A DNA stretch of 64,000 nt from Litoreibacter roseus (GTDB lineage: Bacteria; Pseudomonadota; Alphaproteobacteria; Rhodobacterales; Rhodobacteraceae), in assembly GCF_009811795.1 (NCBI RefSeq), contig NZ_BLJE01000006.1, positions 1 to 64,000 on the forward strand. Reading direction: 5' to 3'. Numbering within the stretch: the stretch's first letter is position 1; the number at the start of each line of letters is the position of its first letter. The notes under the pieces are model-generated. The model searched no databases, was not told the origin of the DNA, and saw only the letters and a list, made by a program, of their open reading frames with translations. Shown piece after piece: positions 5,762 to 19,120 of the stretch. A program made the position numbers and the translations under genes.

Positions 5762-7009
5762 TCAGCCCTCGACTTCGTTGATCGGCCGGATGACCATGCC
5801 GTCCTGCAGGCGGGTCACGCCCGCACTGACCACTGTATCGCCGGCCTCAACGCCTGCGGAGACCTGCACATCGCTGCCCTGCACATCGCCCAATGTAACG
5901 GGGGTCTTTGCCACTGCGCCGCTGGCCGTATCGACGACCCAGACAAACGGCGCGCCATCGGCATCGGCGTCAACGGCACTCAGCGGGATTTTCGTCACCA
6001 TCACTTGATCGTTCGTTGCCGTGGCGATGACGTTGCCCACCATGCCCGGCAAGATGTTTGCCCCTTCCGGCAAGGTAACCGCGACGCGCCCGCGATAGGT
6101 CTGTGTGGCGGAGTCGGCCTGGGTCGAGAATTCGACCAACTCGGCGTGAAGGAGTTCGTCAGGCAAGGCAGTGAAACTGACGTGCGTATCGACATTCCCG
6201 GTGCCCGCAAACGACAGAACGTCGGGGCCGGGCACATCGAAGACCAGATTAACAACCGACAAACGCTGCAAAAGGACGACGTCCTGTCCCGCCTGAATGT
6301 TGGTAAAATTCTCCACTTCGCGCCGTGCGATGATGCCGTCAAAGGGAGCACGCAATGTCGCATCCTCCAGATTGTCGCGCGCGGTCTTTATCTGCGTTTC
6401 AAGCCCGCGAATGGCCGCCTCGGCCGCTTCGATGTCTTCCGCGCGCCCGCCTGAACGGCCAATCGACAGTTGCTGCAACGCGGCCTGCAACTGTGCTTCG
6501 GCGACGCGCTGCGCCGCCCTGTCTTGCTCGACGCGGGCTTCGGCGACAACGCCGCGCTCGGCCAGTCCTTCACTGCGCTGCGCCGCTTCCCGTGCTTGGT
6601 CGGCCTGGGCCTGCGCCGCGTCCACGTCCGCTTGAAACGCGGCAATTTCCTCGTCCCGGGCGCCGGTCCGCAGCGCGCTCAGCTCGGCGTTGGCCTGATC
6701 CAACTGGCTGGTCAGTTGGGTGATCTGCGCTTCGAAGTCTCGAGGGTCAAGACGCGCAATCACATCGCCGTCAGTCACGAAATCAGACGCCCGCACAGGC
6801 AGTTCGATAACCCGGCCTGAGACGCGGAACGATAGAACGGCCTGCTGTGACGGCTCGACAATGGCAGAGTATTGACGTCTGAGCGTGTCTTCTGCCGCCT
6901 CAACGATGACCACCTTGGCGGGGCGGGGCGGGGTGTCCTTACTTTGGCCCTGTGACGCGAAAGCGTACATGATCATGCAGCACGACAGGGTGCACCGTCT
7001 AAAAAGCAT
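5762..7009 (-). CDS. RND efflux periplasmic adaptor subunit
   Basis: A 415-residue membrane fusion protein that links the RND pump to an outer-membrane channel. It shows the usual order: an N-terminal signal or anchor segment with two adjacent Cys, a biotinyl-lipoyl half (VSGRVIELPVRASDFVTDGD), a long Ala/Gln/Glu-rich coiled-coil hairpin at about residues 100-220, the second lipoyl half (LRAPFDGIIARREV) and beta-barrel domains. First gene of the operon adaptor-pump-DUF898-M48, divergent from the K+ channel-like gene with about 85 bp between them. The Cys pair near residues 10-11 could be a lipid anchor, but I do not see a clean lipobox. Confidence 0.92.
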   Translation of the reverse strand: MLFRRCTLSCCMIMYAFASQGQSKDTPPRPAKVVIVEAAEDTLRRQYSAIVEPSQQAVLSFRVSGRVIELPVRASDFVTDGDVIARLDPRDFEAQITQLTSQLDQANAELSALRTGARDEEIAAFQADVDAAQAQADQAREAAQRSEGLAERGVVAEARVEQDRAAQRVAEAQLQAALQQLSIGRSGGRAEDIEAAEAAIRGLETQIKTARDNLEDATLRAPFDGIIARREVENFTNIQAGQDVVLLQRLSVVNLVFDVPGPDVLSFAGTGNVDTHVSFTALPDELLHAELVEFSTQADSATQTYRGRVAVTLPEGANILPGMVGNVIATATNDQVMVTKIPLSAVDADADGAPFVWVVDTASGAVAKTPVTLGDVQGSDVQVSAGVEAGDTVVSAGVTRLQDGMVIRPINEVEG

Positions 7010-7094
7010 GCGTTTTGCCTCCGCTATGTCTTTTCCACTAAGGAGAATCTATGGCTTATTCGCACCGGTTGGTAAACATAGAGGGTGTTGGGCG

Positions 7095-7532
7095 ATGACG
7101 CTGATAGGGCAGATAACATCGGGAACGCTGCTCCTGGTTCTGTGCGCCTTTGCCCATGTGGGCATTATCGTTGGCAGTGTTCCTTGGATCGCAAGACTGG
7201 CGCGCCTGGCGGATATGCGGGTGCCCAGAATCAAGGTCGCGCTGCTTATCGGGTTTGCGTTCGTGATGATTGTCTTTGCCCATACACTTCAGGTCTGGGT
7301 CTGGGCGGTCTCGTTGCTTTACCTTGACGCCTTGTCGGGGTTCGAAAACGCGCTCTATTTCTCGTTGGTCACCTATACGACGCTGGGCTATGGCGATGTC
7401 GTTCTGGCAAAAGAGATGCGTCTTCTGGGGGCGTTTGCGTCTGTCACGGGGCTTCTGACATTCGGGTTGAGCACCGCGTTTCTAGTCGCGCTGGTCACAC
7501 GGGTCTTGCCGAATTCTCTGGGCGGGGATTGA
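7095..7532 (+). CDS. Two-TM potassium channel family protein
   Basis: A 145-residue membrane protein with an Ion_trans_2-type pore. The selectivity filter TTLGYGD lies at residues 95-101, preceded by a pore helix (ALYFSLVTY) and followed by an outer helix. Two further hydrophobic helices are at about 8-35 and 48-75. No RCK/TrkA or cyclic-nucleotide-binding domain is attached, so it would be a minimal channel working as a tetramer. The frame is open further upstream, but the ATG at 7095 gives the natural N-terminus (MTLIGQITSG). It is transcribed away from the RND operon. Homologues are common in Rhodobacteraceae, and the physiological role is unknown. Confidence 0.8.
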   Translation: MTLIGQITSGTLLLVLCAFAHVGIIVGSVPWIARLARLADMRVPRIKVALLIGFAFVMIVFAHTLQVWVWAVSLLYLDALSGFENALYFSLVTYTTLGYGDVVLAKEMRLLGAFASVTGLLTFGLSTAFLVALVTRVLPNSLGGD

Positions 7533-7538
7533 GCACAA

Positions 7539-7757
7539 TCAGGATTGTCCGCCGGACATGGAGCGTATATATCGTAGCCCGAAAAGTGGTTTCAACGGTC
7601 CGGCTCGGCGCACAGCTTCATAAAGGACCACGCTGATCACTACGGCTGATACCACCAGCAAGATATACGACAGAACGGCCGGGATTGCGATATCGCCAGC
7701 AAAGCAGCAACGACGTTGTGGACCGGATAATGCAGAATATAGTGTGAAACGGCATGC
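7539..7757 (-). pseudogene. Remnant of an acyltransferase-3 family gene (C-terminus)
   Basis: On the minus strand one frame reads HAVSHYILHYPVHNVVAALL, the typical Y-x-LHYPV segment before the last helices of acyltransferase-3 membrane proteins. The reading then continues in another frame as IPAVLSYILLVVSAVVISVV and a basic tail, ending at a TGA at 7539-7541. So at least one frameshift is present, and everything upstream of the HAV is missing, cut where the putative IS21-type end begins. I read this as the last roughly 70 codons of a membrane O-acyltransferase destroyed by mobile-element activity. Confidence 0.55.
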
Positions 7758-7812
7758 AAAATTGACCCCGTTGAGGGGGTGATCGGCGTCCAGAAGTGAT
7801 CACCCTGATAAT
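7755..7812. mobile_element. Possible terminal fragment of an IS21-type element
   Basis: Two imperfect units, AAAATTGACCCC and AAGTGATCACCC, are separated by GGCGTCC. They recall the multiple terminal repeats of IS21-family (istA/istB) elements. No istA or istB gene is present, and the segment is squeezed between the acyltransferase remnant and the IS6 element. The assignment is from memory of the family pattern only. Confidence 0.3.
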
Positions 7813-7833
7813 TCTGTTCAGATGCTTCCCAAA

Positions 7834-7893
7834 GGGATTGTTGCGTTAAGCGCCAACGTCGGCACATGATCGAGCTTCTGATTGAGGATCATG
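7834..7893. repeat. Left inverted end of the IS6 element
   Basis: This end matches the reverse complement of 8662-8721 over about 60 bp with four mismatches (positions 11, 43, 49 and 50 of the repeat). That is much longer than the 14-20 bp ends usual for the family. It includes the region around the transposase start on the other side. Confidence 0.85.
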
Positions 7894-7948
7894 GGGACTT
7901 TTGCGTTAAATTGTTTGGCATCGAATTGCCGATGCATTCTGGCAGGTC

Positions 7949-8659
7949 TCATGCTGCCTCTTTGAACAGGCTGACCACAAAGCGCACTTCGCCCGCGACG
8001 CCCGCTTCCCTGCCGACAACATGCCCTCGCTTGATACTGCGAACAGCCTCGATCCCCTTGAGCGTGTCCTTTGCGGCGCTGAGCGATTTGAAGCCGCGCG
8101 CCGGCGTGACCAGTTTCTTGAGCGCGGCATGATCGCTTCTGATCCGGTTGTTCTTCCATTTGCGATCAACGTGCCGGATTTCCTCACCCGGGAACGACCA
8201 ACGGTTCATCTCGCCAATGACCTTGGCGTAGCTATGAGCCTTGTCCGTGACGATCGTCATCGGCTGGTATAGCCGGGCGTTGTCGCACGCTTGTCGAAAG
8301 AACGCCCGGGCCGCTTTTGCATCACGCCGCGCAGTAAGACGAAAATCAATCAACCGGCCATGTTGGTCAACCGCTCGCCAAAGGTAGCGCCATCTGCCGC
8401 CGACCCGAACGTAGGTTTCGTCGACGTGCCAGATCAGGCTGCGGCAGGACTTGTGTTTGAATGAGCGTTTGGCGATCTCGGGTCCAAACTTTCGGACCCA
8501 CCGGTAAATCGTCGCCGCATCGACATGAACGCCGCGCTCCTCGAGCAAATCTTTCACGTCGCGATAGGACAACGCGAACCGGCAGTACCAGCGAACGGCT
8601 TGCAAGATGATATCCTTTGGAAAACGGTGACCTTTGAACGGGTTCTTCGGTGCTGGCAT
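7949..8659 (-). CDS. IS6-family transposase with altered DDE triad
   Basis: A 236-residue IS26-like transposase, starting MPAPKNPFKGH. An N-terminal helix-turn-helix part (SYRDVKDLLEERGVHVDAAT) precedes the catalytic core. Asp80 (IWHVDETYVRV) and Asp139 (MTIVTDKAHSY) match the first two catalytic residues. The DD34E spacing puts the Glu at residue 174, but the sequence there is NNRIRSDHAALK, so Arg174 replaces it. The codon is AGA where GAA would be expected. An upstream in-frame ATG at 8689 is possible, but the 8659 start places Asp80 at the family position. Predicted inactive unless helped by another copy. Confidence 0.85.
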   Translation of the reverse strand: MPAPKNPFKGHRFPKDIILQAVRWYCRFALSYRDVKDLLEERGVHVDAATIYRWVRKFGPEIAKRSFKHKSCRSLIWHVDETYVRVGGRWRYLWRAVDQHGRLIDFRLTARRDAKAARAFFRQACDNARLYQPMTIVTDKAHSYAKVIGEMNRWSFPGEEIRHVDRKWKNNRIRSDHAALKKLVTPARGFKSLSAAKDTLKGIEAVRSIKRGHVVGREAGVAGEVRFVVSLFKEAA

Positions 8660-8661
8660 GG

Positions 8662-8721
8662 CATGATCCTCTGTCAGATGCTCGATCATGTGCCGACGTT
8701 GGCGCTTAACTCAACAATCCC
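8662..8721. repeat. Right inverted end of the IS6 element
   Basis: Partner of the left end. It stops just before the transposase ATG at 8659 and so probably also contains its promoter and ribosome-binding site. Confidence 0.85.
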
Positions 8722-9019
8722 CGAAGAACGGTTTTACCGCACTCACCCAACCATCTGCCGCCATGGTCTGCAGACCGCCACCAAGCGAAGCCGTAAAGTC
8801 CATCTGGATTTCGTCCGTGAATACCGAGCGATGCAGGTCCCAATCCTGCATATCAAAGGCCAACCCGTAATTCGTAATGACCTGGCGGATTTCTTCGCGA
8901 TCCAGAAGGTTTTGTAGTTTGGTTTCGGTGCTGCTGGCCGGTTCCGCGATCGGGGCTTGCTGTGCGGCGACAAAGGTTGGCAACATGGATGCGGCAACAA
9001 GTGTAGCAATGCGGTTCAT
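8722..9019 (-). pseudogene. SnoaL-like protein, 3'-truncated by the IS6 element
   Basis: Begins MNRIATLVAASMLPTFVAAQ, a clear signal peptide, with AAGGAG 8-10 bp upstream of the ATG. The mature part has the SnoaL/NTF2-like pattern LLDREEIRQVITNYGLAFDM-QDW-F-DE-Q-DF. The native reading ends after about 99 codons at the IS6 right end; a few IS-encoded residues then lead to a stop at 8711. SnoaL-like domains usually need about 130 residues, so the last strands are missing. It lies 78 bp downstream of the SDR gene on the same strand and was probably co-transcribed with it. Confidence 0.75.
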
Positions 9020-9097
9020 TCTAACTCTCCTTGGGTGTTTGTTGAGCGATGCGGCGCGGCACAATTGGTGCCGCGCTGATCTATCCGTTTCGGCACA

Positions 9098-9883
9098 TCA
9101 CCGGGCCAGAAAGCCGCCGTTGATGAACAGGGTCTGCGCGGTCACCCACTGGCTGCTGTCAGAGGCCAGAAAATCAATCAGCGGGACGATGTCGGTGATT
9201 TCACCCAGCCGTCCGGCCACGCTCATGTTGCTGAGGTAGGCGGTTGATTGCTCGGTCTCTTCGCCGTGGAAGAATTCGGTATTGATCGGACCAGGAGCAA
9301 CGACGTTCACCGTCACACCCCGGCTGCCGATTTCCTTCGCCAATGCACGGCTGAAGTCTTCCAGCGGAGCCTTGGACCCGGCATAGACGCCGTACATGCC
9401 CGTCGTGGCCCCCAGTAATGTTGTGCCCATGTTGATGATCCGGCCGCCGTCTTCGATGTGTTTGGCCGCTTGTTGCATCGCGAAGAATGCCGCCTTGGTG
9501 TTGATACCGAAGGCGCGGTCAAAGTCGGCTTCAGTGATCTCGGTAAAGGGCTTCTTGATGACGACGCCCGCATTGTTGATGACGATGTCGATGCGCCCGA
9601 ATGCGTCCTTAGCGGCGGCAAAGATCGCGTCGACCGCTGATGCGTCGGACAGATCACCGCTGGTGATCAGGGCGCGCACCCCATGTTCCTGCACGAGGCG
9701 AGCCGTTTCTTCGGCGTCTGCTGCCGAGCTGGCTGCGTGGTGATGCACCACGATATCTGCGCCACGGGCCGCAAGGCTGAGCGCAAAGGCGCGGCCCATG
9801 TTGCGGGCAGAGCCGGTGATTAGTGCGACCTTACCGGTAAGGTCGCGACCGTAGTTTGCGGATGTGTTTGTTTCGGTTGTCAT
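9098..9883 (-). CDS. SDR family NAD(P)-dependent oxidoreductase
   Basis: A 261-residue classical short-chain dehydrogenase. It has the cofactor motif TGSARNMG at residues 24-31, NNAG at 103-106, and the catalytic Tyr167-x3-Lys171 (YAGSK). The usual active-site Ser before the Tyr appears to be Thr (NMGTTLLG). I chose the ATG at 9883 because GGAG lies just upstream; the frame extends further, but the extra residues look non-native. A LysR gene is divergent, and a truncated SnoaL-like gene follows. Dehydrogenase plus NTF2-fold partner suggests oxidation of a small hydroxy compound, substrate unknown. Confidence 0.9.
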   Translation of the reverse strand: MTTETNTSANYGRDLTGKVALITGSARNMGRAFALSLAARGADIVVHHHAASSAADAEETARLVQEHGVRALITSGDLSDASAVDAIFAAAKDAFGRIDIVINNAGVVIKKPFTEITEADFDRAFGINTKAAFFAMQQAAKHIEDGGRIINMGTTLLGATTGMYGVYAGSKAPLEDFSRALAKEIGSRGVTVNVVAPGPINTEFFHGEETEQSTAYLSNMSVAGRLGEITDIVPLIDFLASDSSQWVTAQTLFINGGFLAR

Positions 9884-9904
9884 TTTCTTTCTCCATCTGG
9901 TTGG

Positions 9905-9924
9905 AGACAGGATCATGCCTGTCT
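9905..9924. promoter_or_regulatory. Palindrome in the SDR/LysR intergenic region
   Basis: A perfect inverted repeat, AGACAGG-ATCATG-CCTGTCT, lies between the divergent SDR and LysR genes. Its position and dyad structure make it a likely operator for the neighbouring LysR regulator. No binding data are implied. Confidence 0.45.
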
Positions 9925-9984
9925 TGCCGATGAAGATGGCGCGGCAGCCAATTTTCATGTAGACAGAGATTTGTCATTCACTGC

Positions 9985-10902
9985 ATGCGAAAATCGCAAT
10001 TTATGTTTGAGACAAATGAACAGCTTTTCCTGCGCGTCGTCGATGCGGGCACCCTCAAAGCCGCTGCGGAACAGATAAACGCCGATCCCTCAGCCGTGAG
10101 CCGCAAGATTGCCGCTCTGGAAGATCGACTGAGCGTCAAGCTGCTTCAACGCTCTACCAAGCGCTCAAGACCGACCGAGGAGGGTACTCAGTATTACGAG
10201 GGCATGCGGGCCTTGATCGAACAGCAATCAGCGCTTGAGGCCAGGATCGCGGGCACAGCGGACACGCCGACGGGCATGCTGCGTGTCACCGCACCCGTTG
10301 ATTTCGGGGCCGAGTTTGTCGCGCCGGTCCTCAGTAAGCTTCAAGAGCAAGCACCGAACTTGAAAGTCGAGTTGCTACTCGGGAGCACGTTCTCGGATCT
10401 CTTGGAGCAAAACATCGATGTGGCGATCCGTATCGGACGTCTGCCGGACTCCAGCCTTATTGCGCGGCGGCTCGGATCCGTGCCACGGGTCATTGTCGCG
10501 TCAAACAGCTATGTGGAGGCCAATGGCATGCCGATGACACCTGCACAGGCAGAAAAGCACCGATTCATCATCTACCGGCCCGAACAGAACAATACGTCAA
10601 TAAAGATGCGCCAGAACGGAAAACAGGTAACGATGCCTATGTCAGGCAACCTGACAGTGAACAGCGTGGCAGCCATTCGCAAGCTGATCTCAGCGGGCAA
10701 AGGTCTGCACTTGGGCCCAACATGGGTATTCAAAGACGGTCTGTCCGAAGGGTCAATTGTACGGGTCCTGCCTGAATATGAGTTGGAGGCCTTTCCGCTA
10801 CACGCTGTCTATGTACCCTCGAATTATGTGCCAGCCAAAGTGAGGGCCTTCATTGATCTCATGAGGAGGTCCGTTCGGTCCAACACAGCAATTACTGACT
10901 GA
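9985..10902 (+). CDS. LysR family transcriptional regulator
   Basis: A 305-residue LysR-type regulator. The N-terminal winged helix-turn-helix runs to about residue 65 (AGTLKAAAEQINADPSAVSR, then IAALEDRLSVKLLQRSTKR). The substrate-binding fold follows (TGMLRVTAPVDFG and later VAIRIGRLPDSSL). It belongs to the group with a V/D-A-G-T-L recognition region. An alternative start is the ATG at 10003, and neither start has a strong Shine-Dalgarno. It is divergent from the SDR gene, which it probably controls through the intergenic palindrome. The co-inducer is unknown. Confidence 0.92.
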   Translation: MRKSQFMFETNEQLFLRVVDAGTLKAAAEQINADPSAVSRKIAALEDRLSVKLLQRSTKRSRPTEEGTQYYEGMRALIEQQSALEARIAGTADTPTGMLRVTAPVDFGAEFVAPVLSKLQEQAPNLKVELLLGSTFSDLLEQNIDVAIRIGRLPDSSLIARRLGSVPRVIVASNSYVEANGMPMTPAQAEKHRFIIYRPEQNNTSIKMRQNGKQVTMPMSGNLTVNSVAAIRKLISAGKGLHLGPTWVFKDGLSEGSIVRVLPEYELEAFPLHAVYVPSNYVPAKVRAFIDLMRRSVRSNTAITD

Positions 10903-11270
10903 GCCCAAATCCGTAACGTGCGGTGCGGCCCGAAAGCTGATTTTCAATAATACCAGCTGAACAGCGGCAAAGTCCCACGAACTGTGAATTCTCCATCCCT
11001 TGATTTCGCGGTTGCAACGAATGGCCGATCTGCTGCGCCGCACCGCAGCACGCCGACCGGTGGTTGAATGGCCGGTTTGGGCCGTCACCGATGGTCATTC
11101 GGAGCCTTGCATCATTCTTTAAAAATCGAGGGTTCGACCCGTCATAGCTGTAACTTGCCGCAACCGCAGCGGATGAATGTTCTGATCCATGCTCTGTTAA
11201 TCAACCGTCAATTATTCTCGTTTGCTATTTCAAACGTGTTACCGCACCACCCGGGCCAGTCGATGTGGTG
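10903..11270. other. Intergenic region with repeat copy A
   Basis: No gene is visible between the LysR gene and the convergent hlyD-like gene. The left two thirds hold copy A of the dispersed repeat. Near the right end GCACCAC (11244-11250) pairs with GTGGTGC (11265-11271). This hairpin follows the hlyD-like stop but lacks a T tract. Confidence 0.6.
10968..11084 (+). repeat. Dispersed intergenic repeat, copy A
   Basis: It starts near AAAGTCCCACGAACTGTGA and ends at TTTGGGCCG. It aligns by eye with copies at 19593, 20629 and 25513, all in the same direction. Shared landmarks are GTCCC..ACTGT.A.TT, then GCAACGAATGGCC, then CGCACCGCAGCA, then GGTTTGGGCCG. It lies at the left edge of the secretion-like module. 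Confidence 0.6.
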
Positions 11271-12599
11271 CTACCTTTCTGAGAAGGATTTTCTGAGGGT
11301 CGTATCGATGGGTTTCAAGAAGTAAGCGAGGACGGTCTGTTCGCCGGTTACAATCTCAGCGACCACAGTCATACCGGAGCGAAGAGCACGCACCTGTTTC
11401 TCTTGACCTATAACAGTCTGGTTCAGGCCAATAGCGGCACGAAAGTAGTGCTCACCCGTGACCTCATCAGTAATGGGTACGGGCGACAAGGATAGCAATT
11501 GCCCGGTGACCCTGCCAAATCGCCGCGGGTCAAACGTATCTACGCCGATAGACACAGGCTGAGCCATGTCGATATGTCCGATGTCATTGGCGGGAATGCG
11601 CGCCTCGACGACCAACCCCCTTTGAGCGGGAACAACTTCGAACAATGTCTCGCCAGGCTCAATTACTTCTCCCAGATTGGGGAAAGCGACAGATTGAACG
11701 ACGCCGCTTTCGGGGGCCACGACTGACAAGTCGGCATGACGTGCGGTCGTTTCGGCCAGTGCTGCGGCCAGTTCCACCAATGCGTCACCCTTGCTTTGAA
11801 TTTCGTCACGTGTCCGTTCCCGCAGGTCCAGGTGCGCTTGGTCCCGCTCAGCGGTCGTGCGCGCCAGTGCGCCACGCGCTTCGGCCAGTTCGACGCGCGC
11901 AGCGTTCGTCGCCACCTGAAGTGCATTCAGTTGCTCTTGTTCCACCTGAAATTGACGTTCGGTCATTAGGCCCTGTTCGCGTAGCGTGCGTGTTGTATCC
12001 ATCTGCTTTGATTTGGCCGCGACACGCTGTTCATTGAATGCAAGTGCGGCGGCAAGGACGCTGATCGTTTCGGACTGCCGATCAATTGCAAGTGTCCTGA
12101 CCGTCTGGTTTTGCACATGCAGGTCGAGCTGGTCGGCCGCACTGTCAAACCCACCGCTGCGCAGGACGTCGACACTGTTCGATGTGAGTGGCGCGCCGGA
12201 ACTCAACACTGTTTTCAAAGCCCGCAGGTTTTCGAGGCGAAACCGTTCATGTTGTTCCTGCGCGCTCAGGGTCGCGATGTTGCGCAGGAGGTCAGGCTGT
12301 TTCAAATCAACCAAAGGGGTGCCTGCGGCCACAAGTTCCCCTTCCACCACATGAATGGCGTCGACAATGCCGCCTTCAAGGGTTTCAACCTGGCTGTAGT
12401 TGCCTTGTGGCAGGATTTCGCCAGGTGCGCGCGTCACGTTTGGCATGTTGGTATTGGCGGCCAAAACAATCAGCCCAATGAGCATTGCGCACAAGCTGAA
12501 CGCGATACGCGCGGCGAGGCGCGGCTGGCGGATCAGCTCTTTTTGCTTTGCGCGGTCTATCGCACCTTTGGCGTGCGGAGGTCCTGTTCTACGTTTCAT
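11271..12599 (-). CDS. HlyD family type I secretion adaptor
   Basis: A 442-residue membrane fusion protein of the type I secretion group. A short cytoplasmic N-terminus is followed by one membrane helix at about 30-50. Then come VTRAPGEILPQGNYSQVE and LEGGIVDAIHVVEGELVAAG, the hallmark lipoyl-type start of HlyD/PrtE adaptors. A long coiled-coil (about 85-285) and the second lipoyl half with a beta-barrel (VVAPESGVVQSV onward) complete it. The ATG overlaps the stop of the upstream ABC gene by 4 bp. It would bridge the inner-membrane ABC pair to an outer-membrane TolC protein, for which no gene is present here. Family call firm. Confidence 0.9.
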   Translation of the reverse strand: MKRRTGPPHAKGAIDRAKQKELIRQPRLAARIAFSLCAMLIGLIVLAANTNMPNVTRAPGEILPQGNYSQVETLEGGIVDAIHVVEGELVAAGTPLVDLKQPDLLRNIATLSAQEQHERFRLENLRALKTVLSSGAPLTSNSVDVLRSGGFDSAADQLDLHVQNQTVRTLAIDRQSETISVLAAALAFNEQRVAAKSKQMDTTRTLREQGLMTERQFQVEQEQLNALQVATNAARVELAEARGALARTTAERDQAHLDLRERTRDEIQSKGDALVELAAALAETTARHADLSVVAPESGVVQSVAFPNLGEVIEPGETLFEVVPAQRGLVVEARIPANDIGHIDMAQPVSIGVDTFDPRRFGRVTGQLLSLSPVPITDEVTGEHYFRAAIGLNQTVIGQEKQVRALRSGMTVVAEIVTGEQTVLAYFLKPIDTTLRKSFSER

Positions 12600-14689
12600 G
12601 ACAAATCCTCAAGATTATTTAAAACAGCCATGACTTTTTTGAGCCCTTGTGCGCCCGTGTCATTCACCACAAGCCTTCCCTCATCAAGAAACAGAAAACG
12701 ATCAGCAAGGTGCAGAAAGGATCGATCAGACGTGGCAATGTATAGGGTGCGCGCGCCTTTCACTTGTTCCACCCATACCTTGAAACCCTTGCGACCTTGA
12801 TCGTTCAGACCTGCGGTTGGATCGGCAAAAAGATGGATCGGGGCAGACCGGGCGATACTGCGCGCAAGCGACAGCGCCTTGAGCCAATGCTCAGGCAGCG
12901 CGCTGGCCGCATCGTCGCGCAATCTGGTTTGGAGGCCCTCTGGCAACTCCTCAAAGTCGCCCTTGAGGCCGACATGCGCTAGGGCAGCTGTCATCTCCGC
13001 TTCGGACAGGATTGGGGTGCCGAGACGGAAGTTCTGTGCGACTGTGCCGTAGAAAAAAGCGCTGTTCTGGCGCGCTGACGTCACAGAACGCCGCAATTCG
13101 TCCCGCGCGAGTTGGCGCATATCAATGCCATCGATTTCAATTGTTCCAGCCTGAGGCACATAGAGCCCACCAATGAGGTCGAGCAGCGCTGTGCGGCTCG
13201 TCCCGGTTCCCATGACCACAACCAGTTCACCGGGTTTGCTGCCAAAGCTGACTTGGTTGAGTAAAGGACTCGTCAGTGGGTCGGGGCGGTATGTGACACC
13301 CGAAAACTGAATGGCACCCTCTAGAGTCATTTGATGTAAGGCCGCATGCCCCTGTTCAAACTCCTCAGTCAGGGCAAGCACACGGTCCGCTTGTTTCTGG
13401 CTTTTCAAGAACATCAGGATTTGAGGGATATTTGCATGTAGGGCGTGCAAAGGAGCGATGACCTTGGACACCAAGGCGATTACTGCGATCAACCCGCCGA
13501 AACTCAAATCGCCCGCCAGCACGGCCTGTGCGCTCAGCACAATTGCAGACACGGTCGCTAATGCCGTCGCGGTCTGCGCGAGCGACTGCATTGATGTCCG
13601 GAATTGATGCGCGCGGCCTGATGCCCGTTCAGACACTTCTGTCAAGGGCACACTGCGCAAGCGCCAGATCTCGGCCAGACCCAGATTTACAATTGCACTC
13701 TGGTGGTTGATTGCGTCCTGCAAGACCGCCTTGCTGGCCTCGGCTTCGGCGCTGGCCTTGGCATCCAGCCGCTTCTGTATGGGCAACGCCACACAGCTCA
13801 GAACAACGAAAAAAGCAATGACGCACAAGGTGAGCACGCCCACTGGAATACTGATATACATAAGGACCGCCAAAAAGATCAGTGCAAAAGGCAGGTCTAG
13901 AAGACCGCTCATGACTTGGCCCGTAAACACATCGCGCAGTGCTTCAAATTGGCGGAACCGCGACAGTTGCTGATTGACGCTAGACTTTTGCAGTTGCTGC
14001 AAAGGCAGCGCCATAAATTTGCGGAACAGAGCAACTGACAAAGACTGCTCAACCTCGCGTCCCACATAGGCAATGGCGGTGCTGCGCGCAGAGCGAAGGC
14101 TGAAATCTGTCGCTAGGATGACGCCCACCCCGATGGCCATCGACACCAGCAGATCAACCGAGCCCGCCGGGATGACGCGATCGTAAATCGCCATGATAAG
14201 CAGCGGGGTCAACAGGCCAAGCGCGTTGGTCAGAAACGAAGCGAGGATCAGCCATGGCAGCATGGGTCGTAGCGCGCCAAGCGTTTCGGACACATTTGTT
14301 GCGCGCCGGTCTACGCTTTGGCGCTGGTGTGGCTCAATCCGAAGGACCTGCACGATGCGGCGTGTGGCAGAGTGTGTTCGCCGACCTGACGGTTTAGCGC
14401 TTTCGATCAAAAGGCCACTGGCTGTCTGATCCAATGCGACGTAAACTGATCCCTTGTCCGGTATCACAAGTGCCGGACATTCAGCTTGTGTGATGTCCGT
14501 TTCGCGGCACCGCACCTCCGAAAAGGGAATGCGCATGTTGTTGAGCGTCTGGCGCAGTTCGGCCGGATGCAATTCTTGGGACATGTGCGGAAACGCTTCG
14601 AAGACAGTTACGTCATCACTGCGCCAGCCGCCCGCCAACAACACCGTTTGCAACAAAGCGTTCGCCTGTTGGATCGCGATGCCGGTCAT
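12596..14689 (-). CDS. T1SS-type ABC transporter with degenerate ATPase domain
   Basis: A 697-residue ABC half-transporter of the type I secretion group. Residues 1-120 look like a C39-like domain without the catalytic Cys. Six membrane helices follow (about 140-420), then a nucleotide-binding domain (about 455-690). Every ATPase motif is altered. Walker A at 493-503 is MGTGTSRTALL, one residue short, with Arg in place of Lys. The signature at 596-600 is SALPE instead of LSGGQ. Walker B reads HLFADPTAG, losing Asp-Glu, and Ser654 replaces the H-loop His. The Q-loop Gln541 is kept. It overlaps both neighbours by 4 bp, and the frame is intact, so this looks like divergence rather than decay. 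Confidence 0.85.
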   Translation of the reverse strand: MTGIAIQQANALLQTVLLAGGWRSDDVTVFEAFPHMSQELHPAELRQTLNNMRIPFSEVRCRETDITQAECPALVIPDKGSVYVALDQTASGLLIESAKPSGRRTHSATRRIVQVLRIEPHQRQSVDRRATNVSETLGALRPMLPWLILASFLTNALGLLTPLLIMAIYDRVIPAGSVDLLVSMAIGVGVILATDFSLRSARSTAIAYVGREVEQSLSVALFRKFMALPLQQLQKSSVNQQLSRFRQFEALRDVFTGQVMSGLLDLPFALIFLAVLMYISIPVGVLTLCVIAFFVVLSCVALPIQKRLDAKASAEAEASKAVLQDAINHQSAIVNLGLAEIWRLRSVPLTEVSERASGRAHQFRTSMQSLAQTATALATVSAIVLSAQAVLAGDLSFGGLIAVIALVSKVIAPLHALHANIPQILMFLKSQKQADRVLALTEEFEQGHAALHQMTLEGAIQFSGVTYRPDPLTSPLLNQVSFGSKPGELVVVMGTGTSRTALLDLIGGLYVPQAGTIEIDGIDMRQLARDELRRSVTSARQNSAFFYGTVAQNFRLGTPILSEAEMTAALAHVGLKGDFEELPEGLQTRLRDDAASALPEHWLKALSLARSIARSAPIHLFADPTAGLNDQGRKGFKVWVEQVKGARTLYIATSDRSFLHLADRFLFLDEGRLVVNDTGAQGLKKVMAVLNNLEDLS

Positions 14690-16380
14690 GCTGCACCTGC
14701 TTCAAGTCTGCGTGCCGCCTGCGCATCGGCCCGTGCGTCTGCATCCCATGCGGCCAAATCCGCTTCATTTGCGGGTCCAATCGACAGAATATCGTCAGCG
14801 AGACGTTTCATGCGGGGGTCTAGGCTGGCCATCAATATGGTCGGGCGCGATGGCAGGCTGGCGAGGCACTTGCTGAGCGCTTCGCGTTCGGGTGTTTCCA
14901 AAAAACTGGTTGGCTCGTCCATCAGCAAGACCTTGGGTTGCAGTGCCAGCACGCGCACCAGCGCAATCAATTGCCGATTGACGCGGTCCAGTTCAAAAAT
15001 ATTGCTGGTGTTCAACTCGGTCAGATACCCGGCCGGTTGCCGGAAGATTCGCCGCTCCAGACCAAGCTGTCGTGCGAAGCACTTGGCCCGCTCGATCTGT
15101 TCGGCATCGCCAAAGGCACTGATATTGTCCAGCACAGTGCCTGTGAAGATCGCTGGCGCACGCTCCAGCACGACCAACGCAGATGCACCGCGTTCTGACA
15201 GCCGGTCGACAGCCATCAACTCGTCAATAAGAATGCTGCCGCCGTGGGGGGAGGCCTGACCTGTGATCGCATCAATCAGAGATGCCATGGCCCATTCTTG
15301 TTGCGGCTCGACCAAGACAGTTGATCCTGCCGGGATAACTTTGGAGATCGGCGCTGTGCTGCCAGCTTCGCCCAAAACAACTTCTCTCAAGACAATGTCG
15401 CCCCGCAAGGGTTGCACCGGACGCTCGGGCGTATGCGGGCTTTCCAAAGCGTCCATCTTTTCCAGCATGCGCCGCGACACAGAGATCATCTCTGATTGAA
15501 CGCGCAGCGTAACAAGCCGCGTAAGCGGTTGGATGATCCGGCCATTCAGCATCATGCAGGCTGCCAGCTCAGCGATGCCAATGGATCGCTGAATAACCAG
15601 AAAGGCTCCGAACAAGCCAATGCCGGCAATCGACAATTGCGAAATGATTGATCCAAAGCTCTGTGCAAATCCTGAGAACAGAATCAGCTTGTGGCTGGTT
15701 TCAACTGTCTGACCCTGCAGCCTTTCGAACCGGCGGGTCATCTGCGGCTCCATCGTGTTCGATTTGACTGTCGCGATCTTGGACAACACGTCTGATAGGA
15801 ACGAATAGCGCCGTTCATCCAACGCTTTGCGATTGTCAAAGATAGAGCCCTGCGCGGACTTCATGATGGCGGCAAAGACCAGCACCGCCAGAAGACATGC
15901 CAGCGGAACCATGACCAGCCACCCGCCAATCAGAGCAACCATTGCAAAGAATACGGCGGTGAATGGCAAATCTATCGCAAGCGCTTGGTTCTGGCCGGAA
16001 AAGTGGTCACGCAATCGGGTAACCGCCCCGTATCGCTCAAGGTGTAAGGCCGCGGGAATGTTGGCAAATTTGCGCACGTTGGCCGCGCTGACCCGATTGA
16101 GAAATCGCATATGGTTGTCAACCGCCGCCCGCTCTGCGGCTGCGTTCAGAACGACCGATCGTGACCAGCGCAATATAAATTCCAACCCTGTAGACGCGCA
16201 CAGCAACAAGGTCAGCAGACTAAGTGTTTCATAAGACTGAAACGGGATAACGCGGTCAAAAATCAGCAAGATTGTCACGGGCGTCAGCAATGCAAGGGTA
16301 TTGAGCGCCAAAGACGCTGCAATAATAGGACCATCTATGCGGAGGCCACCAACGCGACCTCTCCATGTGTCATTGAGCAT
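14686..16380 (-). CDS. T1SS-type ABC half-transporter lacking Walker A
   Basis: A 564-residue ABC half-transporter without a C39-like domain. Membrane helices occupy about 15-300 (LLTPVTILLIFDRVIPFQSY is typical of T1SS permeases). The nucleotide-binding domain is degenerate in a different way from its partner's. The Walker A position (357-368) reads VEPQQEWAMASL. The Q-loop Gln is Glu406, the signature (461-465) is IFELD, and the H-loop His is lost (near Ser519). Walker B is intact (LLMDEPTS, Asp488-Glu489). First gene of the operon, divergent from the PA14 protein gene across 184 bp. It probably forms a heterodimer with the next gene product. A fully canonical ATP site cannot be assembled from the two. 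Confidence 0.85.
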   Translation of the reverse strand: MLNDTWRGRVGGLRIDGPIIAASLALNTLALLTPVTILLIFDRVIPFQSYETLSLLTLLLCASTGLEFILRWSRSVVLNAAAERAAVDNHMRFLNRVSAANVRKFANIPAALHLERYGAVTRLRDHFSGQNQALAIDLPFTAVFFAMVALIGGWLVMVPLACLLAVLVFAAIMKSAQGSIFDNRKALDERRYSFLSDVLSKIATVKSNTMEPQMTRRFERLQGQTVETSHKLILFSGFAQSFGSIISQLSIAGIGLFGAFLVIQRSIGIAELAACMMLNGRIIQPLTRLVTLRVQSEMISVSRRMLEKMDALESPHTPERPVQPLRGDIVLREVVLGEAGSTAPISKVIPAGSTVLVEPQQEWAMASLIDAITGQASPHGGSILIDELMAVDRLSERGASALVVLERAPAIFTGTVLDNISAFGDAEQIERAKCFARQLGLERRIFRQPAGYLTELNTSNIFELDRVNRQLIALVRVLALQPKVLLMDEPTSFLETPEREALSKCLASLPSRPTILMASLDPRMKRLADDILSIGPANEADLAAWDADARADAQAARRLEAGAA

Positions 16381-16564
16381 GTTTGCAGAGCCACCTTAGA
16401 AACACCCTTCACTTGGCACGCTGATCATTGCTCGATGGTAAATTCTCAAAGAAAAGATCGACAGTATTTCAATCAATTGCTTCGGAATAAAGAAACGGAT
16501 CGTCAACGATGTCCTGATAGCCCGAGATTCATTCAGAGTGAATATTTTAGTGAGGGTCGCCGTG

Positions 16565-19120
16565 ATGAAACCATCTGACAACGTTTTTGGAGAAGGTCGC
16601 ACCGAACAGGACAGGCCCGACGACAAAGAACAACTCGCGGATGCGTTTTCCAGAGCGACGACAGTGACGGAAGAGGATCAGACGCGTAGCGCCCTACACT
16701 ATGGCAGCGAAGAAAACGGCACCCTCGGTCGCAGCGGACAACCCGGTGCCCGGTCCTCGGGGAACGAGCCATGGGGTCGCATTACACCCGACACTAAGAA
16801 CAGTGAAGGAGATGGCGGGGACAGCTTCCCAGCCCGTCATCAGAGCAGCACCAACGATGGCTCAGAGCCAGGCGCGGCCCAACAAATTCCTACAGAGATT
16901 CCGGTTCAAATCGACGCTCCTGAACCCGCGCAAGAGCGTGGACAGCCTGAAAGTGTTACGCCTGCGGATAGTCTCGCAACGACGGGTTCGGACATAACTC
17001 AATCGGCACCAAATGCTCAAACCGGCGCATTGGGTTTCGTTTCCATTGAACAACCAGCTTCTGATCCACAACAGATCGACGATGCCGAAAACACTCCTAA
17101 TCGCGCGCCTGAACAGATCGAGCTTTCCAACATGGCGGTGGCCGAGAATGCCAGTGGCGCTGTGGTCGGCACGCTGTCGGTCATTGATCCCGATGCGGAT
17201 GATCAACACAGCTTTGACGTGTCCGATGATCGCTTTGAAGTCGTAGACGGCGCATTGCAGCTCAAGCCGGGGATCAGCCTTGATAACGAAGATGCCGCCC
17301 GGATCGAGGTCGAGGTCACCGTCACCGACAGCGCTGGCGCGTCCCTCACCCAGAGCTTTGCCCTTGAAGTTTTGGAAGTGCCAGATGTCTCGATCATGTC
17401 TGGCTTCGAAGCTGAGTATTTTGACGTTGACCACAGGTTGTCCGAGTTAAATGACATTGACTGGTCCGGCCCACCGACCCATCAGGAGGTGACATCGGAA
17501 ATCAACTACACCAACGGGCGCGGCTCCTTTTGGGACGGTGGATCCACTGACACGTTTGGCGTAAAAATCTCAGGCAACGTCGAGGTTGAGGAGGCCGGAA
17601 GCTTTACTTTTTTGCTGGGCGGGGACGACGGGGCGATGCTTTTTGTCAACGGCGAGCCTGTTGTGAACAACGACGGATTGCACGGGTTCAGGACACGTAC
17701 GGGCGAGATCGAACTCGAACCGGGCACCCACCACATCGAGGTCCGTTACTTCGAGAACTATGGCCGTGCTGGTCTGAAGCTGGAGTGGGAAGGCCCTGGG
17801 ATTGACGGCCGCGAACTTGTGGCTTCACCTGATCAAGATGCTTTGCAAACGATTGGCGGGATCCCTTTGACTGTCGATCTGGATATTGATCAGGCCGCCT
17901 TAGGTCCCGAGGACACGGTCAAGCTTACAGCGCTTCCCGAAGGCACTGTTGTGTCAGCTGGCGACATATCGATCACGGTGGACGATGCGGGTGTGGCCGA
18001 CCTCACAGGCTTGGACACGCACATCATGTCCATCACCCCATCGCCAGATTTTGTCGGACAGATTGACGCCGAAATTATTATCACCGTGCACGACGTATCC
18101 GGCCAGTCCGCAAGGTCCGCACATCCGCTGACCTTTGACGTCAACGAAGCCAACTTGAACGCTCCAGAGGCCACGATGGTTGGCGGCTTCAAGGCGAGCT
18201 ACTTCGATGTCGATCACAGCTTGCGCGAGATCGCTGACATCGATTGGGACAGCGATCCAACCCATCAGGAATTTGTGCAGGACATCAATTATGTCAACGG
18301 CAAGGGGTCATTCTGGGCCGGCGGATCTACCGATACGTTCGGGGCAAAACTGGAAGGGCAGATTACTGTCAAAGAGGGGGGTGACTACACATTCTTTGCT
18401 GGCGGTGATGACGGTCTGATCGTTTACATCAATGGAGAACCGCTGATCAACAATGATGGGTTACACGGCTTTCGAACCCGCTCTGGCGAAATTGATCTGG
18501 AACCCGGCACATATGACATCGAAGTCCAATACTTTGAAAATTACGGCCATGCCGGACTGAAGCTGGAATGGGAAGGTCCCGATACAGAGGGGCGTCAGCT
18601 TGTCACCTCCGACCTCGATACCGCTGTTGACGAAAACGCTACACTCGAGGTCGGGCTTGATATCGGCGATGCCAGCGATGCGGCAATGATTTCAATCGAC
18701 GGGCTTCCTGCCAATACAATTTTGCACATTGGGGACGTGTCCATCGTAACGGATGGGAAACCTGCAGACTTGACAGGTCTAGACGTGGAGGTGCTGGAAA
18801 TTTCGCCTCCCCCAGGTTTTGAAGGTGTCATCGAAGGACACATTTCGCTGACCGACAAAGCGTTCAACGGGGCAGAAGTAAGCACACACACACCCTATTC
18901 GCTGACTGTTGGCGATGCTGAAATTGCTTCTGAACAGCAAAATCAGGATGACGATCTTTTGCAGCAAAGCGGCGCGAACCAACAGGGTTGGGACGCCGAG
19001 ATGGACCAAAGTGCTGAGGGTTTTTTGGAGGGCGATGTGATGTCAGAAAGTGTGCCGCAACATTCAAGCGACGAGATCGCTGCAGTCAGCACTGATACCT
19101 ATGAGCGGGTCGATTGGTAG
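16565..19120 (+). CDS. Large PA14/cadherin-like secreted protein
   Basis: An 851-residue acidic protein with no signal peptide, consistent with type I export. Residues 1-180 are hydrophilic and of low complexity. A cadherin-like domain follows at about 185-275 (ENASGAVVGTLSVIDPDADD). Two tandem units of 260 residues come next, each a PA14 domain (about 278-422 and 538-682) plus a beta-sandwich module with ADLTGLD. The PA14 domains keep GGDDG, NNDGLHGFRTR and LKLEWEGP. The last 60 residues are Gln/Asp/Ser-rich and end DTYERVDW, a possible C-terminal export signal. No RTX nonapeptides are seen. I chose the ATG at 16565 (GAGG 9 bp upstream) over a GTG at 16538. Probable substrate of the divergent ABC-HlyD operon; PA14 suggests glycan or surface binding. 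Confidence 0.8.
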   Translation: MKPSDNVFGEGRTEQDRPDDKEQLADAFSRATTVTEEDQTRSALHYGSEENGTLGRSGQPGARSSGNEPWGRITPDTKNSEGDGGDSFPARHQSSTNDGSEPGAAQQIPTEIPVQIDAPEPAQERGQPESVTPADSLATTGSDITQSAPNAQTGALGFVSIEQPASDPQQIDDAENTPNRAPEQIELSNMAVAENASGAVVGTLSVIDPDADDQHSFDVSDDRFEVVDGALQLKPGISLDNEDAARIEVEVTVTDSAGASLTQSFALEVLEVPDVSIMSGFEAEYFDVDHRLSELNDIDWSGPPTHQEVTSEINYTNGRGSFWDGGSTDTFGVKISGNVEVEEAGSFTFLLGGDDGAMLFVNGEPVVNNDGLHGFRTRTGEIELEPGTHHIEVRYFENYGRAGLKLEWEGPGIDGRELVASPDQDALQTIGGIPLTVDLDIDQAALGPEDTVKLTALPEGTVVSAGDISITVDDAGVADLTGLDTHIMSITPSPDFVGQIDAEIIITVHDVSGQSARSAHPLTFDVNEANLNAPEATMVGGFKASYFDVDHSLREIADIDWDSDPTHQEFVQDINYVNGKGSFWAGGSTDTFGAKLEGQITVKEGGDYTFFAGGDDGLIVYINGEPLINNDGLHGFRTRSGEIDLEPGTYDIEVQYFENYGHAGLKLEWEGPDTEGRQLVTSDLDTAVDENATLEVGLDIGDASDAAMISIDGLPANTILHIGDVSIVTDGKPADLTGLDVEVLEISPPPGFEGVIEGHISLTDKAFNGAEVSTHTPYSLTVGDAEIASEQQNQDDDLLQQSGANQQGWDAEMDQSAEGFLEGDVMSESVPQHSSDEIAAVSTDTYERVDW
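17396..18955 (+). repeat. Tandem 780-bp intragenic duplication (PA14 plus beta-sandwich)
   Basis: The first unit begins at 17396 and the second at 18176, exactly 780 bp or 260 codons apart. Both encode the same domain order and share long identical peptides such as NNDGLHGFRTR and AGLKLEWEGP. The second unit ends near 18955. An in-frame tandem duplication is the simplest explanation, now diverged at many third positions. Confidence 0.8.

What the first reader, a model, noticed from the sequence alone, without database searches (positions are those of the whole stretch)
11271..19120. Secretion-like locus whose two ABC subunits both lack a canonical ATP site
Two full-length, translationally coupled T1SS-type half-transporters both have broken ATPase motifs. 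The 697-residue protein has Walker A MGTGTSRTALL (no Lys), signature SALPE, Walker B FADPTAG and no H-loop His. The 564-residue protein has no Walker A (VEPQQEWAMASL), signature IFELD and no H-loop His, but intact Walker B (MDEPTS). Known heterodimeric ABC exporters keep at least one consensus site by sharing motifs across the dimer. Here no pairing of the two gives a Walker A lysine or an LSGGQ. The frames are intact and the operon (ATGA overlaps) ends in an HlyD adaptor. The divergent gene encodes an 851-residue protein with no signal peptide. Either this is a new export mode (ATP-independent, or using a third ATPase), or the pair is a retained pseudo-transporter with another job. This is the best candidate for an undescribed system.
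Basis: partly seen in the sequence, partly recalled or inferred. Interest (0 to 1): 0.88.

Follow-up and report, generated by a model that had tools for sequence, protein, structure and literature searches.

The report
ATPase-dead secretion transporter kept by evolution
Marine bacteria keep a protein-secretion pump in which both motor halves have lost the parts that bind and split ATP, yet selection preserves it together with a dedicated cargo protein, so either something else powers it or it does another job.

Summary
The 564-aa (A) and 697-aa (B) half-transporters lack Walker A lysine, LSGGQ and H-loop histidine, so no pairing restores a canonical site.

It is not decay of one copy. Of 55 A/B pairs tabulated, 17 lack the lysine in both subunits: one clade (bootstrap 100) spanning at least seven genera, with Phaeobacter plasmids among them. 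The other 38 all keep it in B. In five close pairs, dN/dS of the dead ATPase domains is 0.07-0.19. New near-invariant residues occupy the old nucleotide site (A: DPVNR; B: P-loop Arg, ADRS).

Loss looks stepwise: no pair has LSGGQ, and the sister clade keeps B's lysine but no signature or His.

In 14 of 17 loci a divergent cargo gene is seen (three run off contig ends). Its LHxG and ER-x-DW end motifs recur in some cargos of ATPase-intact relatives. No third ATPase gene is common to the loci. The same genome holds a second, also crippled, A/B system.

Best reading: a Type I secretion conduit that no longer hydrolyses ATP but still handles its adhesin-like cargo. Energy source (membrane potential and folding, or another ATPase) is inferred. 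A non-exporting tether is the main rival.

The parts
14686..16380 (-). Subunit A: 564-aa ABC half-transporter without C39-like domain; TMD about aa 1-325, dead NBD about aa 326-564
   Evidence: homologues 41-75% identical
12596..14689 (-). Subunit B: 697-aa ABC half-transporter; N-terminal region (C39-like by alignment to TIGR03375 from residue 23, inferred), TMD about aa 136-455, dead NBD about aa 456-697
11271..12599 (-). HlyD-family type I secretion adaptor, 442 aa
   Evidence: TIGR01843 251.4 bits, cut-off 208.65
16565..19120 (+). Cargo: 851-aa protein with two PA14 domains and a sub-threshold cadherin match, no GGxGxD repeats, net charge -125, pI about 4.05 (alternative GTG start at 16538)
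   Evidence: homologue next to all 11 loci compared
15280..15309 (-). A: former P-loop EPQQEWAMAS (no Gly/Lys); Trp kept in 15 of 17 of the clade
14971..15000 (-). A: former signature, IFELDRVNRQ; clade consensus E.DPVNRQ (E16 D16 P15 V15 N17 R16 of 17)
14908..14928 (-). A: Walker B region LLMDEPT (Asp kept here, replaced in most of the clade; Glu-Pro 17/17)
13187..13213 (-). B: former P-loop MGTGTSRTA, Arg at the Lys position (Arg 16/17 in the clade, Gly in L040)
12878..12904 (-). B: former signature SALPEHWLK
12815..12835 (-). B: Walker B region HLFADPT (Asp lost here and in 16 of 17)
12719..12736 (-). B: former H-loop ATSDRS; D, R and S each 17/17 in the clade
16682..16705 (+). Cargo N-terminal motif TRSALHYG (aa 40-47); LHxG in 14 of 14 clade cargos whose start is held
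19097..19117 (+). Cargo C-terminal motif TYERVDW (aa 845-851); ER-x-(D/E)W in 11 of 11 complete clade cargos

Best explanation
A and B form a heterodimeric, type I secretion-type inner-membrane conduit that, with HlyD and the genome's TolC homologue, handles one dedicated surface protein (the PA14/cadherin-like cargo, most likely an adhesin). The pair does not hydrolyse ATP. Its nucleotide-binding domains have been re-purposed as a nucleotide-free dimer, with new fixed residues (Arg in B's P-loop, DPVNR in A's signature, ADRS in B's H-loop) where ATP used to sit. The cargo is still recognised by its two ends (LHxG near the N-terminus, ER-x-DW at the C-terminus) and still exported. The push comes from elsewhere: membrane potential acting on a chain of net charge about -125 plus folding outside the cell, or an ATP-competent ABC dimer sharing the HlyD ring. 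Shown: motif loss, its conservation and selection, cargo linkage and conserved cargo ends. Inferred: heterodimer, loss of ATP binding, that the ends are recognition signals, export, energy source, adhesin role.
For: Loss of Walker A Lys in both subunits in 17 of 55 pairs, exactly one clade (UFBoot 100), while 38 of 38 others keep it in B. dN/dS of the NBDs 0.073-0.186 in five close pairs of the clade, upper bootstrap bounds at most 0.31. New near-invariant residues at the ex-nucleotide site that the sister group mostly lacks. TMD dN/dS is at or below NBD dN/dS in all five pairs, and columns identical in at least 16 of 17 are 121/329 (A, before the NBD) against 59/231 (A NBD), and 108/320 (B TMD) against 77/240 (B NBD). 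Cargo gene beside all 11 loci compared, with no further gene common to all 11. The C-terminal pattern was found in 11 of 1334 distinct ORFs, all 11 cargo-type genes. A and B are one fused 1317-aa protein in L095, which supports pairing. HlyD and TolC over their curated cut-offs. In the HlyA system three HlyB dimers per complex are reported with only one as channel (passages of PMC9751043), which makes an engine in trans conceivable.
Against: In HlyA, surface exposure needed an HlyB that binds and hydrolyses ATP, and Ca2+ did not change the secretion rate (passages of PMC5018854); a dead ABC should therefore not export by the known mechanism. No export, expression or structure data exist here; both AlphaFold models were useless (mean pLDDT 41 and 33). 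The P-loop Arg could still hold nucleotide weakly. The dead NBDs are less constrained than in the one ATPase-intact control pair (NBD 0.040 and 0.015). For B the TMD is barely more conserved than the NBD by columns (34% v 32%), and its N-terminal region much less (23/133). The claim that composite site 1 is more conserved than site 2 is weak (969 of 20000 random blocks do as well). The cargo end motifs are shared with only part of the ATPase-intact relatives.
Confidence: 0.5

Rival explanations
1. Pseudo-transporter: the pair no longer exports. It is an inner-membrane receptor, plug or tether that holds the cargo or the HlyD/TolC duct, or senses assembly, while another transporter exports the cargo.
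For: ATP hydrolysis is essential in the one well-studied T1SS (passages). Re-fixed residues would suit a static NBD dimer. The genome keeps an intact PrtD-like transporter at C2, about 425 kb.
Against: The cargo keeps conserved ends like those of some cargos of ATPase-intact relatives, and no intact A/B pair was found in this genome to export it. TMDs, i.e. the conduit, are at least as constrained as the NBDs.
Confidence: 0.25
2. Engine in trans: the A/B dimer is the cargo-specific channel, and an ATP-competent dimer of another system (for example the PrtD-like transporter) in the same HlyD ring supplies ATP hydrolysis. (This is one of the two energy variants inside the best explanation, scored here on its own.)
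For: HlyB is reported as three dimers per complex with one channel (passages of PMC9751043). An intact PrtD-like transporter and other intact exporter-type ABC proteins (L098, L099) occur in the same genome.
Against: In the reported system all three dimers hydrolyse ATP. No ATPase gene is common to the loci. Nothing here shows mixed complexes.
Confidence: 0.15
3. Cryptic ATPase: a remodelled site still binds and splits ATP (B P-loop Arg + A DPVNR + B Glu).
For: The catalytic-Glu position is Glu in 15/17 B and 17/17 A (Asp in the window's B). B P-loop Arg 16/17. A Walker A Lys-to-Arg change occurs in the degenerate site of ABCG5/G8 (passage of PMC7756269).
Against: The B A-loop aromatic and H-loop His are gone in 17/17, B Walker B Asp in 16/17 (kept in L040), and both signatures are remodelled. 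In the review passages the degenerate site is not the one that hydrolyses.
Confidence: 0.08
4. Simple decay of a redundant secretion locus.
For: Motifs are broken.
Against: Low dN/dS in several pairs, 17 loci with open frames, and conserved new motifs.
Confidence: 0.02

Closest known systems
LssB/LapB/HlyB type I secretion ABC transporters with HlyD and TolC (TIGR03375, TIGR01846; HlyB PDB 7SGR)
   Same: Best NCBIfam matches of both subunits (358.5 and 220.8 bits to TIGR03375); HlyB is the best solved relative; HlyD adaptor, TolC homologue and adjacent large cargo.
   Different: Two subunits, both far under the TIGR03375 cut-off (693.1 bits); no Walker A Lys, LSGGQ or His; window cargo without RTX repeats.
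Alphaproteobacterial A+B+HlyD pairs without LSGGQ but with Walker A and B (L022, L028, L076-L095; no name found)
   Same: Gene order A-B-HlyD where HlyD is held; acidic cargo beside many, in some with LHxG and EK-x-EW-like ends.
   Different: B keeps Walker A and Walker B Asp and usually the His; A usually keeps the Walker A Lys.
Heterodimeric exporters with one degenerate site (TmrAB, TM287/288, TAP; review PMC7756269, abstract and passages)
   Same: Two different half-transporters with degenerate motifs.
   Different: Those keep one canonical site; here neither composite site is canonical.
MARTX RtxB/RtxE transporter pair (recalled; only a search listing seen)
   Same: Two-ABC type I secretion of a very large protein.
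   Different: Recalled as ATP-competent; not compared here.
Salmonella SPI-4 SiiF with the SiiAB proton channel (passages of PMC12607715)
   Same: Giant non-RTX Ca2+-binding adhesin secreted by a T1SS, with a proton-channel component.
   Different: SiiF is described as hydrolysing ATP, and SiiE secretion continues without SiiAB; no gene beyond A/B, HlyD and cargo is common to the loci here.

Membership tests
Type I secretion system (ABC + HlyD + TolC) | HlyD-family adaptor in the operon | tested here: met
   TIGR01843 251.4 bits over cut-off 208.65
Type I secretion system (ABC + HlyD + TolC) | TolC-type outer-membrane protein in the genome | tested here: met
   One TIGR01844 match, 271.7 bits over 225.15, G000:C1:489802-490989; not linked to the locus
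Type I secretion system (ABC + HlyD + TolC) | ABC subunit with functional Walker A, Walker B, signature and H-loop | tested here: not met
   Motifs absent by sequence; activity itself not measured
Type I secretion system (ABC + HlyD + TolC) | One-step export of the linked cargo | not testable with these tools
   Needs deletion mutants and a surface or medium assay
LssB/LapB ABC family (TIGR03375) | Score over the curated cut-off (693.1 bits) | tested here: not met
   B 358.5, A 220.8 bits
Heterodimeric ABC exporter with one degenerate site | At least one composite site with Walker A Lys, catalytic Glu, His and LSGGQ | tested here: not met
   Neither pairing gives it
RTX protein (cargo) | GGxGxD nonapeptide repeats | tested here: not met
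   0 in the window cargo; Pfam finds PA14 and a weak cadherin match

The most novel reading that the evidence does not exclude
An ABC-derived protein secretion system that works with no ATP binding or hydrolysis by its own subunits. In one Roseobacter-family clade the ATP that glued the two NBDs has been replaced by direct residue contacts (B P-loop Arg facing A's DPVNR), and export of a highly acidic adhesin runs on membrane potential and extracellular folding.
Probability: 0.25. Interest if true: 0.93.

Novelty: new variant of a known kind. Interest (0 to 1): 0.8.

Why it matters
Known type I secretion and ABC exporters are treated as needing at least one working ATP site. A conserved lineage that lost both, with intermediates still alive and motif-intact relatives for comparison, is a natural experiment on what ATP does in type I secretion (gate or motor). 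It also occurs on plasmids of cultured Phaeobacter strains, so deletion tests look practical.

Tried and rejected
Decay: rejected by dN/dS, conservation and breadth. Sequencing or frame artefact: rejected by 17 open loci. 'A partner operon in the same genome supplies the lost motifs': the only other A/B pair found (L003) lacks A's Walker A, has Gln for the catalytic Glu in B and no LSGGQ; no intact A/B pair among the matches. Third ATPase at the locus: none common to the 11 loci; the A/B homology group also holds one unrelated ABC ATPase in L020 and one in L035. Structure: both models far too poor, so no fold search was run. Site-1 against site-2 asymmetry: suggestive only. A's P-loop as a purely drifting loop: on 7 sequences its pairwise identity was 0.19 against 0.52 for the NBD, but 17 sequences show one Trp kept in 15. 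dN/dS of distant pairs is saturated and not used as a number. An idea that B's TMD is much more conserved than its NBD was dropped: 108/320 v 77/240 columns. Literature: ten searches (listings of titles and abstract starts) showed no description of such a double-dead pair; most subscription papers are not held. The Phaeobacter gallaeciensis genome paper PMC4148982 (passages only) mentions another T1SS on pGal_F69; this locus was not in the passages seen. PMC8277102 and PMC11026475 were seen as passages only.

Rows dropped: L072 and L073 left out of alignments (L073 identical to L071, L072 98-99% identical to L074 in A and B; their P-loops also lack the Lys). Seven of eleven Phaeobacter plasmid hits were not opened. 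L082 (B cut by a contig end) left out of the trees; one search used 38 of 39 loci, one search used 41 of 55. L055 and L060 were wrong-strand ORF picks and were ignored. One search printed 8 of the 17 loci asked for. dN/dS pair L072 v L074 (too few changes: B NBD 0 synonymous, 2 non-synonymous; B whole 0.59, 0.19-2.5) is not in the five-pair range.
Full report
WHAT IS THERE. Four genes: A (14686-16380 -, 564 aa), B (12596-14689 -, 697 aa) and HlyD (11271-12599 -, 442 aa), with ATGA overlaps, and a divergent 851-aa cargo (16565-19120 +) after a 184-base gap. Pfam finds ABC_membrane and ABC_tran in A and B, and two PA14 domains and a sub-threshold cadherin match in the cargo. NCBIfam's best match for both A and B is TIGR03375 (LssB/LapB type), far under its cut-off; HlyD passes TIGR01843. 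The B A-loop aromatic and B Walker B Asp are gone too.

A SECOND COPY. The genome (G000, 4.47 Mb in 27 contigs) has another four-gene set of the same layout (L003: cargo 750 aa, A 556 aa, B 735 aa, HlyD 446 aa). Its A has no Walker A; its B keeps the Lys but has Gln for the catalytic Glu, no LSGGQ and no His. Searches with B-type queries find no intact A/B pair in this genome: these two, an intact PrtD-like transporter and other exporter-type ABC proteins.

RELATIVES. Search by A: 15 of 101 relatives (E 1e-40), 3 of 21 genomes of the genus, own included, 7 of 394 of the family (E 1e-60), 18 of 390 of the order (query L039 A, E 1e-90); 29 plasmids, 11 of them Phaeobacter; a 75% homologue in the Rhodobacteraceae MAG ALOHA_ZT_56 (L035). 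A more distant query (L028 A) matches 48 of 385 class genomes (E 1e-80). I tabulated 55 pairs (39, 16 more).

MOTIFS. LSGGQ: 0 of 55 A and 0 of 54 readable B (one B cut by a contig end). Outside the clade and its nearest relatives A mostly reads LPxG; B is more mixed (LPAG, LAGG, FPTG, MSAG and others). Walker A Lys in B: kept in 38 of 38 loci outside one group, lost in 17 of 17 inside it (Arg in 16, Gly in L040). In A it is lost in all 17 and also in 11 of the other 38. The 17 are the window, L035, L038, L039, L040, two Phaeobacter plasmid loci (L071, L074) and L140-L149. Genus labels seen are g1, g84, g127, g166, g233, g333 and g380, so at least seven genera (Phaeobacter may be one of these; the MAG's genus is unknown). 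They form one clade (UFBoot 100; sister L020, L021, L150-L154, UFBoot 93; same picture with fewer members). The sister group keeps B's Lys (7/7) and A's in 5/7, but has lost signatures and His, and has Asn for the Walker B Asp in 7/7 B and 5/7 A. The order suggested by the tree is therefore signature first, then His and Walker B Asp, then Walker A and the B A-loop; L040, the earliest branch of the clade, still has the B Walker B Asp.

SELECTION. Nei-Gojobori dN/dS with codon bootstrap. Phaeobacter L071 v L074 (dS 0.26-0.49 by domain): A NBD 0.132 (0.072-0.235), B NBD 0.186 (0.106-0.292), A TMD 0.090, B TMD 0.058, B N-terminal region 0.28; L071 v L072 is similar (A NBD 0.137, B NBD 0.171). L144 v L145, L141 v L143, L142 v L145 (dS 0.68-0.90): A NBD 0.117-0.135, B NBD 0.073-0.089, TMDs 0.043-0.105. 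Window v L035: about 0.1, dS near or past saturation. L072 v L074 has too few changes to use (B whole 0.59, 0.19-2.5). Control, an ATPase-motif-intact pair L022 v L088: NBD 0.040 (A) and 0.015 (B), TMD 0.012 each, dS 0.94-1.42. So the dead NBDs are under clear purifying selection, though weaker than in that one control.

NEW MOTIFS. In the 17: A has Trp in the P-loop (15/17), E.DPVNR in the signature (E16 D16 P15 V15 N17 R16), S-P-D-P-R at the H-loop (16, 16, 17, 17, 16). B has RPDPL at the A-loop (17, 16, 17, 17, 16), Arg in the P-loop (16), FSEPT at Walker B (17, 14, 15, 17, 17), T-A-D-R-S at the H-loop (16, 14, 17, 17, 17). The sister group lacks most of these (exceptions: B's A-loop Arg, Walker B Pro and H-loop Asp are already there). 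I read this as re-use rather than drift. Whether the composite site B-P-loop/A-signature is favoured over the other is suggestive only (969 of 20000 random blocks reach the difference).

CARGO. All 11 loci compared share three homology groups: HlyD, A/B and a divergent cargo; no other group reaches all 11. L020 and L035 each have an unrelated intact ABC ATPase gene a few kb away. Of the 17, cargo is seen in 14; in the other three (L140-L142) the contig ends within 1 kb upstream of A. LHxG is in 14 of 14 clade cargos whose start is held, and all 11 complete ones end in ER-x-(D/E)W, as do 6 of 6 of the sister group. ATPase-motif-intact relatives: L079, L080, L090 and Palleronia L075 match the C-terminal pattern; L028, L076 and L077 end EKIEG/EKIEI, L094 has ERIEW before four Gly, L029 has none; the L003/L026 pair lacks it. 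The pattern matched 11 of 1334 distinct ORFs of at least 150 aa in all loci then held, all 11 cargo-type genes. LHxG is in L028, L079, L080, L084, L086 (and in L003, L026), but the pattern was not found in L022 (which has IHMG), L029, L075-L078, L083, L085, L087, L088, L090, L093 or L094. Clade cargo length runs from 833 to over 2800 aa; Pfam cadherin stretches from none (L040) to 16 (L071). All 15 cargos measured are acidic; window net charge -125, pI 4.05. RefSeq starts of the cargo in three of four opened Phaeobacter records are too far downstream: the open frame with LHTGE runs on upstream.

PAIRING. In L095 (G456) A and B are one 1317-aa protein, which supports a heterodimer.

MECHANISM. 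Known facts against easy export: in HlyA secretion, exposure at the surface needed HlyB able to bind and hydrolyse ATP, Ca2+ did not change the rate, and proton motive force is named as a possible or early contributor (passages of PMC5018854). A Ca2+ folding ratchet is reported for CyaA (same passages). HlyB is reported as three dimers per complex, one the channel (passages of PMC9751043). From these I favour a conduit that does not hydrolyse ATP itself (0.5 in all), the energy being membrane potential and folding or an engine in trans; next a non-exporting tether (0.25).

NOVELTY. A review of degenerate exporters (abstract and passages) describes one degenerate plus one working site; none of my ten searches listed a double-dead pair. 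I class it as a new variant of a known kind; if export without ATP were shown it would be a new kind.

LIMITS. No experiment, no usable structure (mean pLDDT 41 and 33), uneven sampling, NG86 rather than codon-model dN/dS, a single intact control pair, and orthology judged by tree and gene order.

Noticed in passing
L003 (G000:C1:834000-853000), 6292-13866: Second four-gene copy in the same genome: A without Walker A, B with Walker A Lys but catalytic Glu to Gln; a similar one in L026 (same genus). A separate route to a crippled transporter.
   Followed up: partly
L095 8037-11990: A and B fused into one 1317-aa protein.
   Followed up: partly
L003 13876-14955 (-) and L026 12976-14004 (-): A conserved neighbour gene next to the paralogous system; only a sub-threshold NMT1-like Pfam match in L003, none in L026.
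   Followed up: no
L022, L028, L076-L095: Wide alphaproteobacterial two-ABC secretion family without LSGGQ (LPxG-like in A, mixed in B) although Walker A and B mostly remain; I found no name for it.
   Followed up: partly
L072, L073, L074 (Phaeobacter plasmids), upstream of 8532: Annotated start of the PA14 cargo is too far downstream; the conserved N-terminus lies upstream in frame.
   Followed up: yes
window 7949-8689 (-): DDE transposase of the IS240 type (Pfam PF13610) about 2.6 kb from the operon's end.
   Followed up: no
window 6885-7532 (+): Ion channel gene (PF07885) overlapping the start of an HlyD/RND-type adaptor gene on the other strand (5762-7009).
   Followed up: no
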